Assembly: GCA_902806205.1 (NCBI GenBank)
Contig: CADCVR010000032.1
Span: 1 to 32,183, forward strand
Length of the DNA: 32,183 bases
Origin: an uncultured Solirubrobacteraceae bacterium
Lineage (GTDB): Bacteria; Actinomycetota; Thermoleophilia; Solirubrobacterales; Solirubrobacteraceae
Direction of reading: 5' to 3'
Part shown: in pieces, positions 5,407 to 8,703 of the stretch
Layout: the number at the start of each line of letters is the position of its first letter
How positions within the stretch are numbered: the stretch's first letter is position 1
Program-made: the position numbers and the translations under genes
The notes under the pieces: generated by a model
What the model was told of the DNA's origin: nothing
Database searches by the model: none
The model's input: the letters and a program-made list of their open reading frames with translations, nothing else

Positions 5407-6552
5407 GTGCCGATCCGGGGAGAAGCGCCCGTCGACGACCTCGGGAGGTTCTACGTCGACGGACGCGCGTGGCTGGGGCCGGCCGATTGGTTCGACGCCC
5501 ACACGCACATCGGCGCCAACGACCCCGATGGCGTACGCGGCACCCCGGCGGAGATCCTGGCCGGGCTCGACGCTGCGGGCCACCGGCGCGCGCTGCTGTT
5601 CGCGATGCAGGAGCCCGGGGGCTATCCGGAAGCGAACGACGTGGTGCTCGAGGCGTGCGCGGCTTCCGGCGGTCGGTTCGTGGCGCTGGTCCGAGTGGAC
5701 CCCAACGCCGCGGGAGCCGTTACCGAAGCGCGTCGCGGCCTCGACGCGGGCGCGCGCGGGATCAAGCTGCACCCCCGCTCGGACCGCTTCGGCCTACCGC
5801 ACCCCGTCGTCGACGAACTCGTCGCGCTGGCGGGGGAGCGCCGCGCCCTCGTGCTCTTCCACGCCGGCCGGGGCATCCCCGTACTCGGCCTGGCCGCGGC
5901 CGCCCTCGCGCGCAAGCACGCCGACGCGGCGATCGTGCTCGCCCACGCGGGGATCTCCGACCTCGGGCTGCTGCGCAACGAGGCCGCCGCACTGCCCAAC
6001 CTGTTCTTCGACACGGCGTGGTGGCAGGTCGCCGACATGCTCGCGCTGATGACCAGCGTCCCGCCCGGTCGGATCCTGTACGCCAGTGACATGCCCTATG
6101 GGCCAGGGCGCTTCACCGCCTTGCTGCTGCTGCGCACGGCGCGCGCCGCCGGCCACACACCGGAGGCGGTGCGCGCGATGGCGGGCGGGCAGCTCGGGCG
6201 CCTGGTCGCCGGGGAGGCACCGCTCGACCTCGGGCCCGCCCGGGGCACCGCGGCACTCGCTCCTCGTGAGCCGGCGCTCGAGCGCGTCGTCGTCCACGCG
6301 TCGGCGGCGGCGTCGGTCGCCTTCCGCGACGGCGATCCGACGGAGGCGCTCGCGCTCGCCCGCCTCGCCTGCCAGACCGCGAGCGGGGAGCCGAACGCCG
6401 CGTTGCTCGCGGCGGCCGACGACGTGCTCGGACGGACGCAGGCCCACGCCGCCCGGGTGCCGGGCGACCCCCTCGCGGTGCTGGCGGGCGCCCTGGTCGC
6501 CCAGGCGCTCTGCGGCACCCCGGAAGCCGGCGTCCCCGCCCGTCCGGTGTGA
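5407..6552 (+). CDS. Amidohydrolase-family metal-dependent hydrolase
   Basis: The 381-aa protein is an amidohydrolase of the PF04909 kind with a TIM-barrel metal site. The HxH is in FDAHTHIG (His32, His34). Other metal or catalytic landmarks are GIKLHPR, LVLFHAGRG, IVLAHAGISD and the late aspartate in ILYASDMPYG. The last 130 or so residues are Ala-rich and helical and extend past the usual barrel. Substrate unknown; relatives act on cyclic amides, decarboxylate aromatics or hydrolyse lactones. GTG 5407 is chosen because it follows a TAGGTT box by 7 nt and precedes the conserved region. Confidence 0.82.
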   Translation: MPIRGEAPVDDLGRFYVDGRAWLGPADWFDAHTHIGANDPDGVRGTPAEILAGLDAAGHRRALLFAMQEPGGYPEANDVVLEACAASGGRFVALVRVDPNAAGAVTEARRGLDAGARGIKLHPRSDRFGLPHPVVDELVALAGERRALVLFHAGRGIPVLGLAAAALARKHADAAIVLAHAGISDLGLLRNEAAALPNLFFDTAWWQVADMLALMTSVPPGRILYASDMPYGPGRFTALLLLRTARAAGHTPEAVRAMAGGQLGRLVAGEAPLDLGPARGTAALAPREPALERVVVHASAAASVAFRDGDPTEALALARLACQTASGEPNAALLAAADDVLGRTQAHAARVPGDPLAVLAGALVAQALCGTPEAGVPARPV

Positions 6553-6583
6553 CGCGTCGCACAGCGTCCGCCGGCGCAGCGGC

Positions 6584-6589
6584 TACTGT
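6584..6589 (+). promoter_or_regulatory. Putative -10 box for the riboswitch-RlpA transcript
   Basis: TACTGT lies just upstream of the riboswitch aptamer. A start near 6596 would give a leader of about 210 nt before the RlpA-like gene. Confidence 0.4.
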
Positions 6590-6602
6590 GCGCGCGTACG
6601 TT

Positions 6603-6786
6603 CGATCGCCGAGTCGTACCCACACCCGTGGGCACGAGCGGGGGACCCATTGCCAGGAGGCGAACCGCCGGACCTGGATGGGGCGAATCGCCGGCCACGA
6701 GCCGGCGTAGCGTCCGGATCGCCGTCGCCCACGCGGCGTACGACCGGCTGCGAGCCCGACAGCTAACCCCGTAGGCGGCAGAGACC
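6603..6786 (+). ncRNA. c-di-AMP riboswitch (ydaO/yuaA class)
   Basis: The leader of the RlpA-like gene carries the hallmark segments of the ydaO-yuaA class in the right order: GGGGGACCCA (6650-6659), GGGGCGAATCGCC (6680-6692), a GC-rich stem with GGCGTAGCG, and the highly conserved 3' part CCGACAGCTAACCCCGTAGG (6757-6776) followed by GCGGCAGAGACC. In actinobacteria this class commonly controls resuscitation and cell-wall hydrolase genes and binds cyclic di-AMP, which fits the gene below. Exact ends are estimated. The 3' flank contains two mutually exclusive pairings over the Shine-Dalgarno (see findings), suggesting translational control. Confidence 0.85.
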
Positions 6787-6790
6787 TGAG

Positions 6791-6805
6791 AAGGAGGTCG
6801 ACCTC
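6791..6805 (+). promoter_or_regulatory. Shine-Dalgarno within competing hairpins
   Basis: AAGGAGGT (6791-6798) is a strong ribosome-binding site 10 nt before ATG 6809. Its AGGTC (6795-6799) can pair with GACCT upstream (6783-6787) or with an identical GACCT downstream (6800-6804), the latter forming the GAGGTCGACCTC palindrome. It is probably the expression platform of the riboswitch. Confidence 0.6.
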
Positions 6806-6808
6806 GAT

Positions 6809-7585
6809 ATGGGGCCGATGAACCACACTCGCGGCGCGCTTGCCGCCGCGGGCGCAGTCAGCATCGCCGCCGTGGCTCCCGCCATGGCGCAGACGGCCGC
6901 GCAGCGACCCGCCGGCGACCCGGCCCGAGTGGCCACCGGCAAGGGCGGCGCCGAGGCGCCGGGGGATCCCCGTTCCGGCGCCCCGGGCCTCATGGCCACC
7001 AAGCCCGCAAGACCCACCAAGTCCACCAAGAACCGCGGTTGGTTCTCGATCCGCTCGGCCCGGCGCAACGTCACGCTCGGCGACCGGACGCTGGTCAAGG
7101 GGTCGCTGCGGCCCGCGAGGGCCGGTCGCCGTGTCCAGTTGCAGGTCCGGGCCGGCGACACGTGGAAGACGGTGGCGCGCGACGTCACCGACCGGCGCGG
7201 TGCGTGGCGACTGCGGTACACCGCGGATCGCCCGAGCGCGTCGCGCACCCGCGTCGCCTTCGCCGGCGATGCGCGGACCCGAGCCGTCGCCCGCAGTCTC
7301 GGAACCGTGAACGTCTTCCGCCGGGCGCTGGCGTCCTGGTACGGTCCGGGCCTCTACGGTGGCCGGCTGGCCTGCGGGGGGCGCCTCTCCCCGGGAACGC
7401 TCGGTGTCGCCCACAAGGCGCTGCCGTGCGGCACGAAGCTCACTCTGCGCCACCAGGGGCGGAGTGTCCGTGTGGCGGTGGTCGACCGCGGCCCGTATGT
7501 CGGCTCGCGCGAGTTCGACCTCACGAGCGCGACGCGCAACCGGCTCGGGTTCGCGGGCACGGGCACGGTCCTCAGCACCAAGTAG
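6809..7585 (+). CDS. Secreted RlpA-like double-psi beta-barrel protein
   Basis: The 258-aa protein begins with a signal peptide (hydrophobic about residues 9-27, cleavage probably after AMA). A low-complexity linker rich in Ala, Pro and Lys and an Ig-like or beta-sandwich region (about 80-165) follow. The C-terminal RlpA-type double-psi beta-barrel covers about 174-256 and contains ASWYGPGLYGGRLACGG, the AHKALPCGTKL strand and VVDRGPYVGSREFDLT with the Asp and Tyr typical of lytic RlpA domains. RlpA proteins cleave or bind denuded peptidoglycan; lytic activity is likely but not shown. It sits behind a c-di-AMP riboswitch, as wall hydrolases often do in actinobacteria. ATG 6809 has the better Shine-Dalgarno spacing; ATG 6818 is an alternative. 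Confidence 0.85.
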   Translation: MGPMNHTRGALAAAGAVSIAAVAPAMAQTAAQRPAGDPARVATGKGGAEAPGDPRSGAPGLMATKPARPTKSTKNRGWFSIRSARRNVTLGDRTLVKGSLRPARAGRRVQLQVRAGDTWKTVARDVTDRRGAWRLRYTADRPSASRTRVAFAGDARTRAVARSLGTVNVFRRALASWYGPGLYGGRLACGGRLSPGTLGVAHKALPCGTKLTLRHQGRSVRVAVVDRGPYVGSREFDLTSATRNRLGFAGTGTVLSTK

Positions 7586-7620
7586 GTCAGGAACCCAAGG
7601 CGATCATCCGCCGGGCCACG

Positions 7621-7626
7621 TAGCCT
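7621..7626 (+). promoter_or_regulatory. Putative -10 box, leaderless start of dinB
   Basis: TAGCCT lies 9 nt before GTG 7636 in the short gap after the RlpA-like gene, suggesting dinB has its own leaderless transcript. No SOS-box-like palindrome is evident. Confidence 0.35.
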
Positions 7627-7635
7627 CCGCGGAGC

Positions 7636-8703
7636 GTGGCCCGGTTGATCGCCCACCTGGACCTCGACGCGTTCTACGCGACGGTCGAGCTGCAACGCCG
7701 GCCCGAGTTGCGCGGACTGCCCGTCATCGTCTCGGGCAGCGGTCCGCGCGCCGTGGTGACCACCGCGTCCTACGAGGCGCGCAGGTTCGGCGTCGGCTCG
7801 GCGATGCCGACCTCGCGTGCGCTGCGCCTGTGCCCTGACGCGGTGCTCGTGCCGCCGGACTTCGAGGCCTACCGCGCCGTGTCACAGAAGGTCATGACCC
7901 TCGTGCGCGGCACGGTGGACGTCGTGGAGGTGCTCGGACTCGACGAGGCCTACCTCGACTTGAGCGGCATGCACTCGCCCAAGGCCGCGATGCGCCGCCT
8001 CGTCACCCAGATCCGTGAGCAGACCGGCATGAGCGCCTCGGTCGGCATCGGGCCGAACACGCTGGTGGCGAAGGTCGCCTCCGACGCGGAGAAGCCGCGA
8101 GGGTTCGTCGTGCTCACGCGCGAGGAGGCCTGCCTGCGGTTCGCCCACGCCTCGCCCTCGCTCGTGCCGGGCATCGGGGCGAAGACCGCCGAGAAGCTAG
8201 AGCGCCTGGGCATCACCACCCTGCAGCAGCTCGCGGCGACTCCCGGGGAGGTGCTCGCGCAGCACTTCGGTGGCCGCCAGGGGCCGTGGCTGCGCTCACG
8301 CGCGCGCTTCGAGGCCTCCGATCAGATCACGCCCGTTCGGGTGGCCGTCAGCGAGTCGCGGGAGACGACCTTCGACATCGACGTCACCGACGGCGAAGAG
8401 CTCGCGGCGGCATTGCGGCGGTTGAGCGAGAATCTCTGCGACGGCCTCGCCCGGCACCGCCGCTCGGGCCGGACGATCGCGATCAAGGTGCGCCTCGACG
8501 ACTGGACGACGGTCACCCGTGCCCGCACGGTGGAGCAGCCGACGAACGACGTCGAAGTCGTCTACGACGTCGCGCGCGGGCTGCTGTGCGAATACGCCCC
8601 GTCGCGGCCCGTCAGGTTGCTCGGCGTGCGGATGGCGACCTTCGCCGACGAGGCAGAGGACGCACCTCGGCCGCCGGGCGGCCAGCTCGCGCTGCCCTGG
8701 TGA
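7636..8703 (+). CDS. dinB: DNA polymerase IV (Y family)
   Basis: The 355-aa protein is a complete Y-family translesion polymerase. The catalytic aspartate is in HLDLDAFYATVE (Asp9) and the second acidic pair in VLGLDEAYLDLSG (Asp103, Glu104). SVGIGPNTLVAKVASDAEKP follows, then a helix-hairpin-helix thumb (LVPGIGAKTAEKLERLGI) and the little-finger domain. The C-terminus QLALPW resembles a beta-clamp-binding motif. The usual SVDE around the catalytic pair reads GLDE here. It is error-prone and acts in bypass of damaged bases. GTG 7636 gives the normal N-terminus. Confidence 0.95.
   Translation: MARLIAHLDLDAFYATVELQRRPELRGLPVIVSGSGPRAVVTTASYEARRFGVGSAMPTSRALRLCPDAVLVPPDFEAYRAVSQKVMTLVRGTVDVVEVLGLDEAYLDLSGMHSPKAAMRRLVTQIREQTGMSASVGIGPNTLVAKVASDAEKPRGFVVLTREEACLRFAHASPSLVPGIGAKTAEKLERLGITTLQQLAATPGEVLAQHFGGRQGPWLRSRARFEASDQITPVRVAVSESRETTFDIDVTDGEELAAALRRLSENLCDGLARHRRSGRTIAIKVRLDDWTTVTRARTVEQPTNDVEVVYDVARGLLCEYAPSRPVRLLGVRMATFADEAEDAPRPPGGQLALPW

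What the first reader, a model, noticed from the sequence alone, without database searches (positions are those of the whole stretch)
6603..6811. c-di-AMP riboswitch with two identical anti-SD arms flanking one SD
After the ydaO-type aptamer, GACCT occurs at 6783-6787 and again at 6800-6804, and both can pair with AGGTC (6795-6799) in the ribosome-binding site. The upstream GACCT touches the 3' strand of the aptamer's closing stem, so ligand binding could decide which hairpin forms. This points to control at translation. Both hairpins block the SD to a degree, so the logic (graded or on/off) is not obvious.
Basis: partly seen in the sequence, partly recalled or inferred. Interest (0 to 1): 0.6.

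Follow-up and report, generated by a model that had tools for sequence, protein, structure and literature searches.

The report
c-di-AMP riboswitch before rlpA gene

Summary
Confirmed: an Rfam RF00379 c-di-AMP aptamer (6597-6792) lies in front of a secreted RlpA-type (DPBB) gene (ATG 6809) in a Solirubrobacterales genome (same genus as Paraconexibacter antarcticus), and GACCT/AGGTC/GACCT lie where stated.

The mechanism needs revising. In 79 related leaders the upstream GACCT occurs only in the window, and it does not touch P1. The downstream arm abuts AGGTC, so a 5-bp hairpin is impossible. The conserved part is CCTC between SD and start. In 23 of 24 leaders with CCTC it is followed by N3-6 and GAGG across the start codon (window: GGGG). 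So it is mainly one arm of a start-codon hairpin, not an anti-SD.

The larger result lies upstream. The rlpA riboswitch promoter carries a CRP-like palindrome (33 of 36 leaders, against 2 of 58 other riboswitch leaders) and, in many genera, a perfect LexA box CGAACN4GTTCG directly after the -10 and 3-13 nt before P1 (20 of 36 against 2 of 58). The identical box precedes lexA in these genomes. In the window this LexA box is degraded (2 mismatches).

The only c-di-AMP synthase found is DisA, whose synthesis stops at damaged DNA, so SOS and c-di-AMP relief could act together. The circuit is inferred from sequence.

The parts
6548..6563 (.). CRP/FNR-type palindrome TGTGACGCGTCGCACA (one mismatch to TGTGAN6TCACA)
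   Evidence: <=1 mismatch in 33/36 rlpA riboswitch leaders vs 2/58 other riboswitch leaders; 62/73 vs 0.2 expected in dinucleotide shuffles; fixed 26-30 nt spacing to the LexA box in most leaders that have one
6584..6589 (+). presumed -10 element TACTGT (TANNNT in relatives); TSS not mapped
   Evidence: listing: TANNNT ends 1-3 nt before the LexA box in most family-f1 leaders; the same arrangement at lexA
6591..6604 (.). degenerate LexA (SOS) box CGCGCGTACGTTCG, 2 mismatches to CGAACN4GTTCG; perfect in many relatives
6597..6792 (+). c-di-AMP (ydaO/yuaA) riboswitch aptamer, extended variant of about 196 nt
   Evidence: RF00379, 47.1 bits; orthologous leaders also match
6606..6610 (+). P1 5' strand UCGCC
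   Evidence: pair 4 of P1 varies compensatorily (CG 32, TA 17, TG 15 of 75)
6774..6778 (+). P1 3' strand GGCGG
6783..6787 (+). upstream GACCT arm; can pair with 6795-6799 but present only in this genome
6791..6798 (+). Shine-Dalgarno sequence AAGGAGGT
   Evidence: Sequence
6802..6805 (+). conserved CCTC: 5' arm of a start-codon hairpin, alternatively a weak anti-SD
6811..6814 (+). GGGG after the start codon (GAGG in relatives), 3' arm of the start-codon hairpin, with a G-U pair here
6809..7585 (+). rlpA-type gene: secreted double-psi beta-barrel protein, 258 aa
   Evidence: PF03330 DPBB_1, E 6e-13; TIGR00413 rlpA, below its curated cut-off
7636..8703 (+). dinB, DNA polymerase IV, 51 nt after rlpA

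Best explanation
A c-di-AMP riboswitch of the translation-acting actinobacterial kind controls an rlpA-type gene. When c-di-AMP is bound, P1 and the compact aptamer sit about 13 nt before a strong SD and should hinder 30S binding; without c-di-AMP the SD is usable (OFF switch; inferred). In this clade a small hairpin, CCUC-N3-6-GAGG across the start codon (weaker in the window, with GGGG), adds a constant brake on initiation; I find no sign that the ligand switches it. The upstream GACCT hairpin is a local addition of this genome. In the rlpA lineage as a whole the leader is transcribed from a promoter with a CRP-like site near the -35 region and, in many genera, a LexA operator over the presumed transcription start. 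DNA damage would then act twice: LexA loss turns transcription on, and DisA stops making c-di-AMP, which relieves the riboswitch. In the window's own genome the LexA box has decayed, so only the CRP-like and c-di-AMP inputs are well supported there.
For: Aptamer: with homologues throughout the order. P1 co-variation. No terminator. Start-codon hairpin: 23/24 CCTC leaders keep GAGG 3-6 nt further on across ATG/GTG/TTG, even when GAGG shifts to codon 3 (L197, L228); 2/104 control genes. CCTC 16/33 and TGAGG 18/33 vs 2/65 and 0/65 in control genes. LexA box: 20/36 vs 2/58 other riboswitch leaders, 24/73 vs 0.05 in shuffles; 3-13 nt from P1; 10-19 perfect boxes per genome vs 0-6 for the reversed pattern. 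The same box precedes lexA in seven genomes of the genus, including the window's, where it follows a -10 directly. CRP-like site 33/36 vs 2/58; CRP-type proteins present. One diadenylate cyclase found per genome in seven of eight genomes; in the window's genome it has the DisA linker. Precedents: translational c-di-AMP OFF riboswitch (PMC9960051); DisA synthesis suppressed at DNA damage sites (PMC6547438 abstract).
Against: Thermodynamic folding shows no consistent change in SD or start accessibility when the aptamer 3' strand is freed, so how the ligand reaches the SD is not shown. CCTC is absent from genus g14 and from families f2 and f3. LexA boxes are absent from many genera and degraded in the window. 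The TSS is not mapped, and LexA and CRP binding are untested.
Confidence: 0.68

Rival explanations
1. One reading: two identical GACCT arms compete for one AGGTC in the SD, and ligand binding chooses between them.
For: The sequences are present; the upstream hairpin alone folds at -5.5 kcal/mol.
Against: The upstream arm is unique to the window among 79 leaders and lies clear of P1. The downstream 5-bp pairing has no loop. The local fold is no better than shuffles.
Confidence: 0.06
2. CCTC is mainly a true anti-SD: it sequesters the SD, and GAGG at codon 2 acts as an anti-anti-SD that frees it.
For: CCTC-SD pairing is predicted to dominate in L063, L071 and L084 and L228; the mirror geometry GAGG-CCTC-GAGG is conserved.
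Against: In several leaders CCTC lies only 1 nt from the SD GAGG, too close for four pairs, whereas the CCTC-GAGG loop is always 3-6 nt. Mean pairing is 0.17 with the SD vs 0.65 with the start region.
Confidence: 0.2
3. The riboswitch acts on transcription (attenuation or RNA stability), as in B. subtilis ydaO, and the SD features are incidental.
For: PMC9960051 cites a report that an S. coelicolor riboswitch gave terminated transcripts in vitro.
Against: No terminator-like site in 6400-6900; the aptamer runs almost directly into the SD in nearly all leaders seen.
Confidence: 0.18
4. The CGAACN4GTTCG palindrome at the riboswitch start is an RNA 5' hairpin or an unrelated regulator's site, not a LexA operator.
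For: It would form a 5-bp hairpin if transcribed; LexA binding has not been measured.
Against: In the perfect copies the arms are identical to the box in front of lexA and, in 16 loci, to the core between rlpA and dinB, and the site directly follows a -10 in the same way at lexA.
Confidence: 0.08

Closest known systems
C. glutamicum nlpC c-di-AMP riboswitch (PMC9960051)
   Same: ydaO-type aptamer, actinobacterium, secreted cell-wall enzyme, translational OFF switch, CTCC/GGAG anti-SD proposed by its authors, cAMP-dependent GlxR also acts on the promoter
   Different: Target here is RlpA-type, not NlpC/P60; CCTC lies after the SD and pairs preferentially with codon 2; LexA operator at the promoter of many relatives
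Streptomyces coelicolor rpfA riboswitch (St-Onge et al. 2015, 2017, as described in PMC9960051)
   Same: c-di-AMP riboswitch of a muralytic enzyme combined with cAMP input
   Different: Attenuation of transcripts reported; target Rpf; I found no report of a LexA input
B. subtilis ydaO/kimA riboswitch (Rfam RF00379 prototype)
   Same: Aptamer family
   Different: Terminator-based transcriptional control; transporter gene
LexA/SOS regulon of Gram-positive type (CGAACN4GTTCG boxes)
   Same: Operator sequence and position after the -10, as at lexA in the same genomes
   Different: Applied to a riboswitch-controlled cell-wall gene; degenerate in the window

Membership tests
RF00379 c-di-AMP riboswitch | Covariance-model score above gathering cut-off | tested here: met
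   47.1 vs 38 bits, full model length
RF00379 c-di-AMP riboswitch | P1 closing stem conserved with compensatory changes | tested here: met
   pairs 1-3 formed in 75/75 leaders, pair 4 in 65/75 with CG/TA/TG types
RF00379 c-di-AMP riboswitch | Binds c-di-AMP | not testable with these tools
   Needs in-line probing or ITC
Translation-acting c-di-AMP riboswitch | No terminator; SD close after the aptamer | tested here: met
Translation-acting c-di-AMP riboswitch | Ligand-dependent sequestration of the SD | tested here: inconclusive
   Energy models show no consistent change between bound-like and free-like states
   Upstream arm only in the window among 79 leaders
LexA/SOS regulon | Perfect CGAACN4GTTCG at the promoter, window copy | tested here: not met
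   CGCGCGTACGTTCG, 2 mismatches
LexA/SOS regulon | Perfect CGAACN4GTTCG at the promoter, orthologues | tested here: met
   29 of 79 leaders carry one, across several genera and families
LexA/SOS regulon | LexA binds and DNA damage induces | not testable with these tools
   Needs gel shift, ChIP and mitomycin C induction
RlpA lytic transglycosylase | DPBB domain | tested here: met
   PF03330 above cut-off
RlpA lytic transglycosylase | Full-length RlpA subfamily model above cut-off | tested here: not met
   TIGR00413 45.1 vs 82.15 bits; so 'RlpA-type', not RlpA proper

The most novel reading that the evidence does not exclude
In Solirubrobacterales, a LexA operator and a c-di-AMP riboswitch are stacked on one leader so that DNA damage relieves both locks on a cell-wall enzyme (LexA cleavage releases transcription; DisA stalling lowers c-di-AMP and releases translation), with a CRP-type activator as a third input: a DNA-damage gate on peptidoglycan remodelling that I did not find described.
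Probability: 0.5. Interest if true: 0.72.

Novelty: new variant of a known kind. Interest (0 to 1): 0.5.

Why it matters
Whether the DNA-damage sensing of DisA ever reaches riboswitch-controlled genes is, as far as I know, open. Here a LexA operator and a c-di-AMP riboswitch lie on the same leader in many genera, often next to dinB, and in the window's genus DisA appears to be the only c-di-AMP synthase. That makes the question directly testable, for example in the cultured Paraconexibacter antarcticus. The conserved CCUC/GAGG start-codon hairpin is a second, simpler thing to test.

Tried and rejected
(1) Two-arm anti-SD: upstream arm not conserved. (2) Pairing of CCCCGUA (aptamer 3' strand) with UAUGGGG over the start codon, seen in the window's free fold: relatives have AUGAGG, which breaks it; not pursued. 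(3) Ligand-driven redistribution of SD pairing by energy model: no consistent effect. (4) Co-variation to separate CCTC-SD from CCTC-codon 2: judged uninformative by eye because the SD is fixed; loop length was used instead. (5) Terminator: none. (7) Papers: none held that combine ydaO, RlpA and riboswitch; the few that combine LexA with c-di-AMP riboswitch terms do not appear to report this (only PMC9960051 was opened).

Full report
What was claimed and what is there. The Rfam scan of the whole window gives one hit, the c-di-AMP aptamer RF00379 at 6597-6792 (47.1 bits, cut-off 38). GACCT 6783-6787, AGGTC 6795-6799 and GACCT 6800-6804 are present, with SD AAGGAGGT 6791-6798 and ATG 6809. The gene encodes a 258-aa protein with a signal-peptide-like N-terminus (by eye) and a C-terminal DPBB domain (PF03330). 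It resembles RlpA but stays below the full RlpA model's cut-off, hence 'RlpA-type'. dinB follows after 51 nt.

Where it comes from. Related loci are Thermoleophilia, mostly Solirubrobacterales. The window's genome holds five RF00379 hits, and all 61 genomes searched have some.

Testing the two-arm model. P1 is 6606-6610/6774-6778, so GACCT at 6783 starts 5 nt beyond P1. The two arms AGGTC and GACCT (6800-6804) touch, so only GAGG/CCUC with a UCGA loop can form (-3.3 kcal/mol; upstream hairpin -5.5). The local fold is not more stable than shuffles (z 0.29). Among 79 distinct related leaders the upstream GACCT occurs in the window only. An upstream anti-SD of >=5 bp of any sequence occurs in 3 of 61 leaders against 0.8 expected, and in 2 of 65 ordinary genes. 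The upstream arm is therefore a private feature of this genome.

What is conserved near the start. CCTC between SD and start occurs in 16 of 33 rlpA leaders with a GGAG-type SD against 2 of 65 control genes; TGAGG at the start codon in 18 of 33 against 0 of 65. In the enlarged set of 79 leaders (62 with such an SD), 24 have CCTC and 23 of these have CCTC-N3-6-GAGG across ATG, GTG or TTG. The 24th is the window, with GGGG. GAGG is kept even when it moves to codon 3 (L197, L228). Control genes show this pattern in 2 of 104. In several leaders CCTC is 1 nt from the SD's GAGG, too close for a 4-bp hairpin, whereas the loop to the codon-2 GAGG is always 3-6 nt. Predicted pairing of CCTC is 0.65 with the start region and 0.17 with the SD. 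I read it as a start-codon hairpin. The species are related, so the p-values overstate independence; CCTC is seen in at least nine genera of family f1 and is absent from genus g14 and families f2 and f3.

How the ligand might act. No terminator is seen, and the aptamer runs almost directly into the SD in nearly all leaders. The C. glutamicum nlpC riboswitch was found to act as an OFF switch most likely on translation, with a CTCC/GGAG pairing proposed by its authors (PMC9960051). By analogy P1 and the ligand-bound aptamer probably hinder 30S loading. Energy calculations with and without the aptamer 3' strand show no consistent change in SD pairing (0.66 vs 0.64) or start pairing (0.45 vs 0.50), so this step is inferred, not shown.

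The upstream region. rlpA riboswitch leaders carry a perfect CGAACN4GTTCG in 20 of 36 cases against 2 of 58 other riboswitch leaders, and in 24 of 73 against 0.05 in dinucleotide shuffles. It lies 3-13 nt before P1, directly after a TANNNT -10-like element. The identical box stands before lexA in seven genomes of the genus, the window's included, where it again follows a -10 directly. Such boxes number only 10-19 per genome against 0-6 for the reversed pattern. A CGAACN4GTTC core also lies between rlpA and dinB in 16 of the 54 loci with dinB just downstream (some loci are the same genome fetched twice). In a class-wide pattern scan 82 of 399 genomes matched box plus P1 motif against 46 for a swapped-halves control; 13 of the 19 candidates fetched from it proved to be this locus with a recognisable aptamer. 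The site is defined here by fixed arms, so its lack of co-variation is not an independent test; its identity to the lexA box is the stronger argument for a protein site. A CRP-like TGTGAN6TCACA with at most one mismatch is present in 33 of 36 rlpA leaders against 2 of 58 others, 26-30 nt before the LexA box in most family-f1 leaders. In the window the CRP-like site is 6548-6563 and the LexA box is degraded (CGCGCGTACGTTCG, 6591-6604, 2 mismatches); the closest relative L061 has 1 mismatch. dinB in the window has no box of its own.

Why the combination is interesting. Seven of the eight genomes of the genus show exactly one diadenylate cyclase and the eighth (68% complete) none; the window's copy has the DisA linker. 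In B. subtilis DisA's synthesis is suppressed at sites of DNA damage (PMC6547438 abstract). So DNA damage could release both the LexA lock on transcription and the c-di-AMP lock on translation. This is an inference from operator sequence and known biochemistry; no binding or expression data exist here. Held papers did not describe it, but subscription papers are not covered.

Verdict. The riboswitch is an ordinary member of a known family in an expected genomic setting. The start-codon hairpin and the LexA/CRP/c-di-AMP stacking are new variants worth testing, mainly in relatives rather than in the window's own genome.

Noticed in passing
window 6548-6604 and orthologous loci L062, L064-L069, L071, L074, L076, L077, L138-L152: CRP-like palindrome and LexA box at the promoter of the rlpA riboswitch; LexA box perfect in many relatives, degraded in the window.
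   Followed up: yes
window 7586-7635: The rlpA-dinB gap is 51 nt with no LexA box in the window, while 16 other loci have one there; dinB may have become part of the rlpA transcript.
   Followed up: partly
L044, L057, L168 (second DPBB paralogues with their own c-di-AMP riboswitch), also L002 and L037: A LexA-like palindrome (perfect in L044 and L168, 1 mismatch in the others) inside the 5' part of the aptamer itself, next to P1; may be chance from the P2 stem.
   Followed up: no
L005 (reverse strand), L059: c-di-AMP aptamers whose P1 is followed within about 10 nt by ATG with no recognisable SD.
   Followed up: no
L140, L146, L257 (genus g14 and relatives): Leaders without CCTC have other small inverted repeats between SD and start (GTTGTCAATCAAC, GTTTCAAAAC, GTTGTAAACAA).
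   Followed up: no
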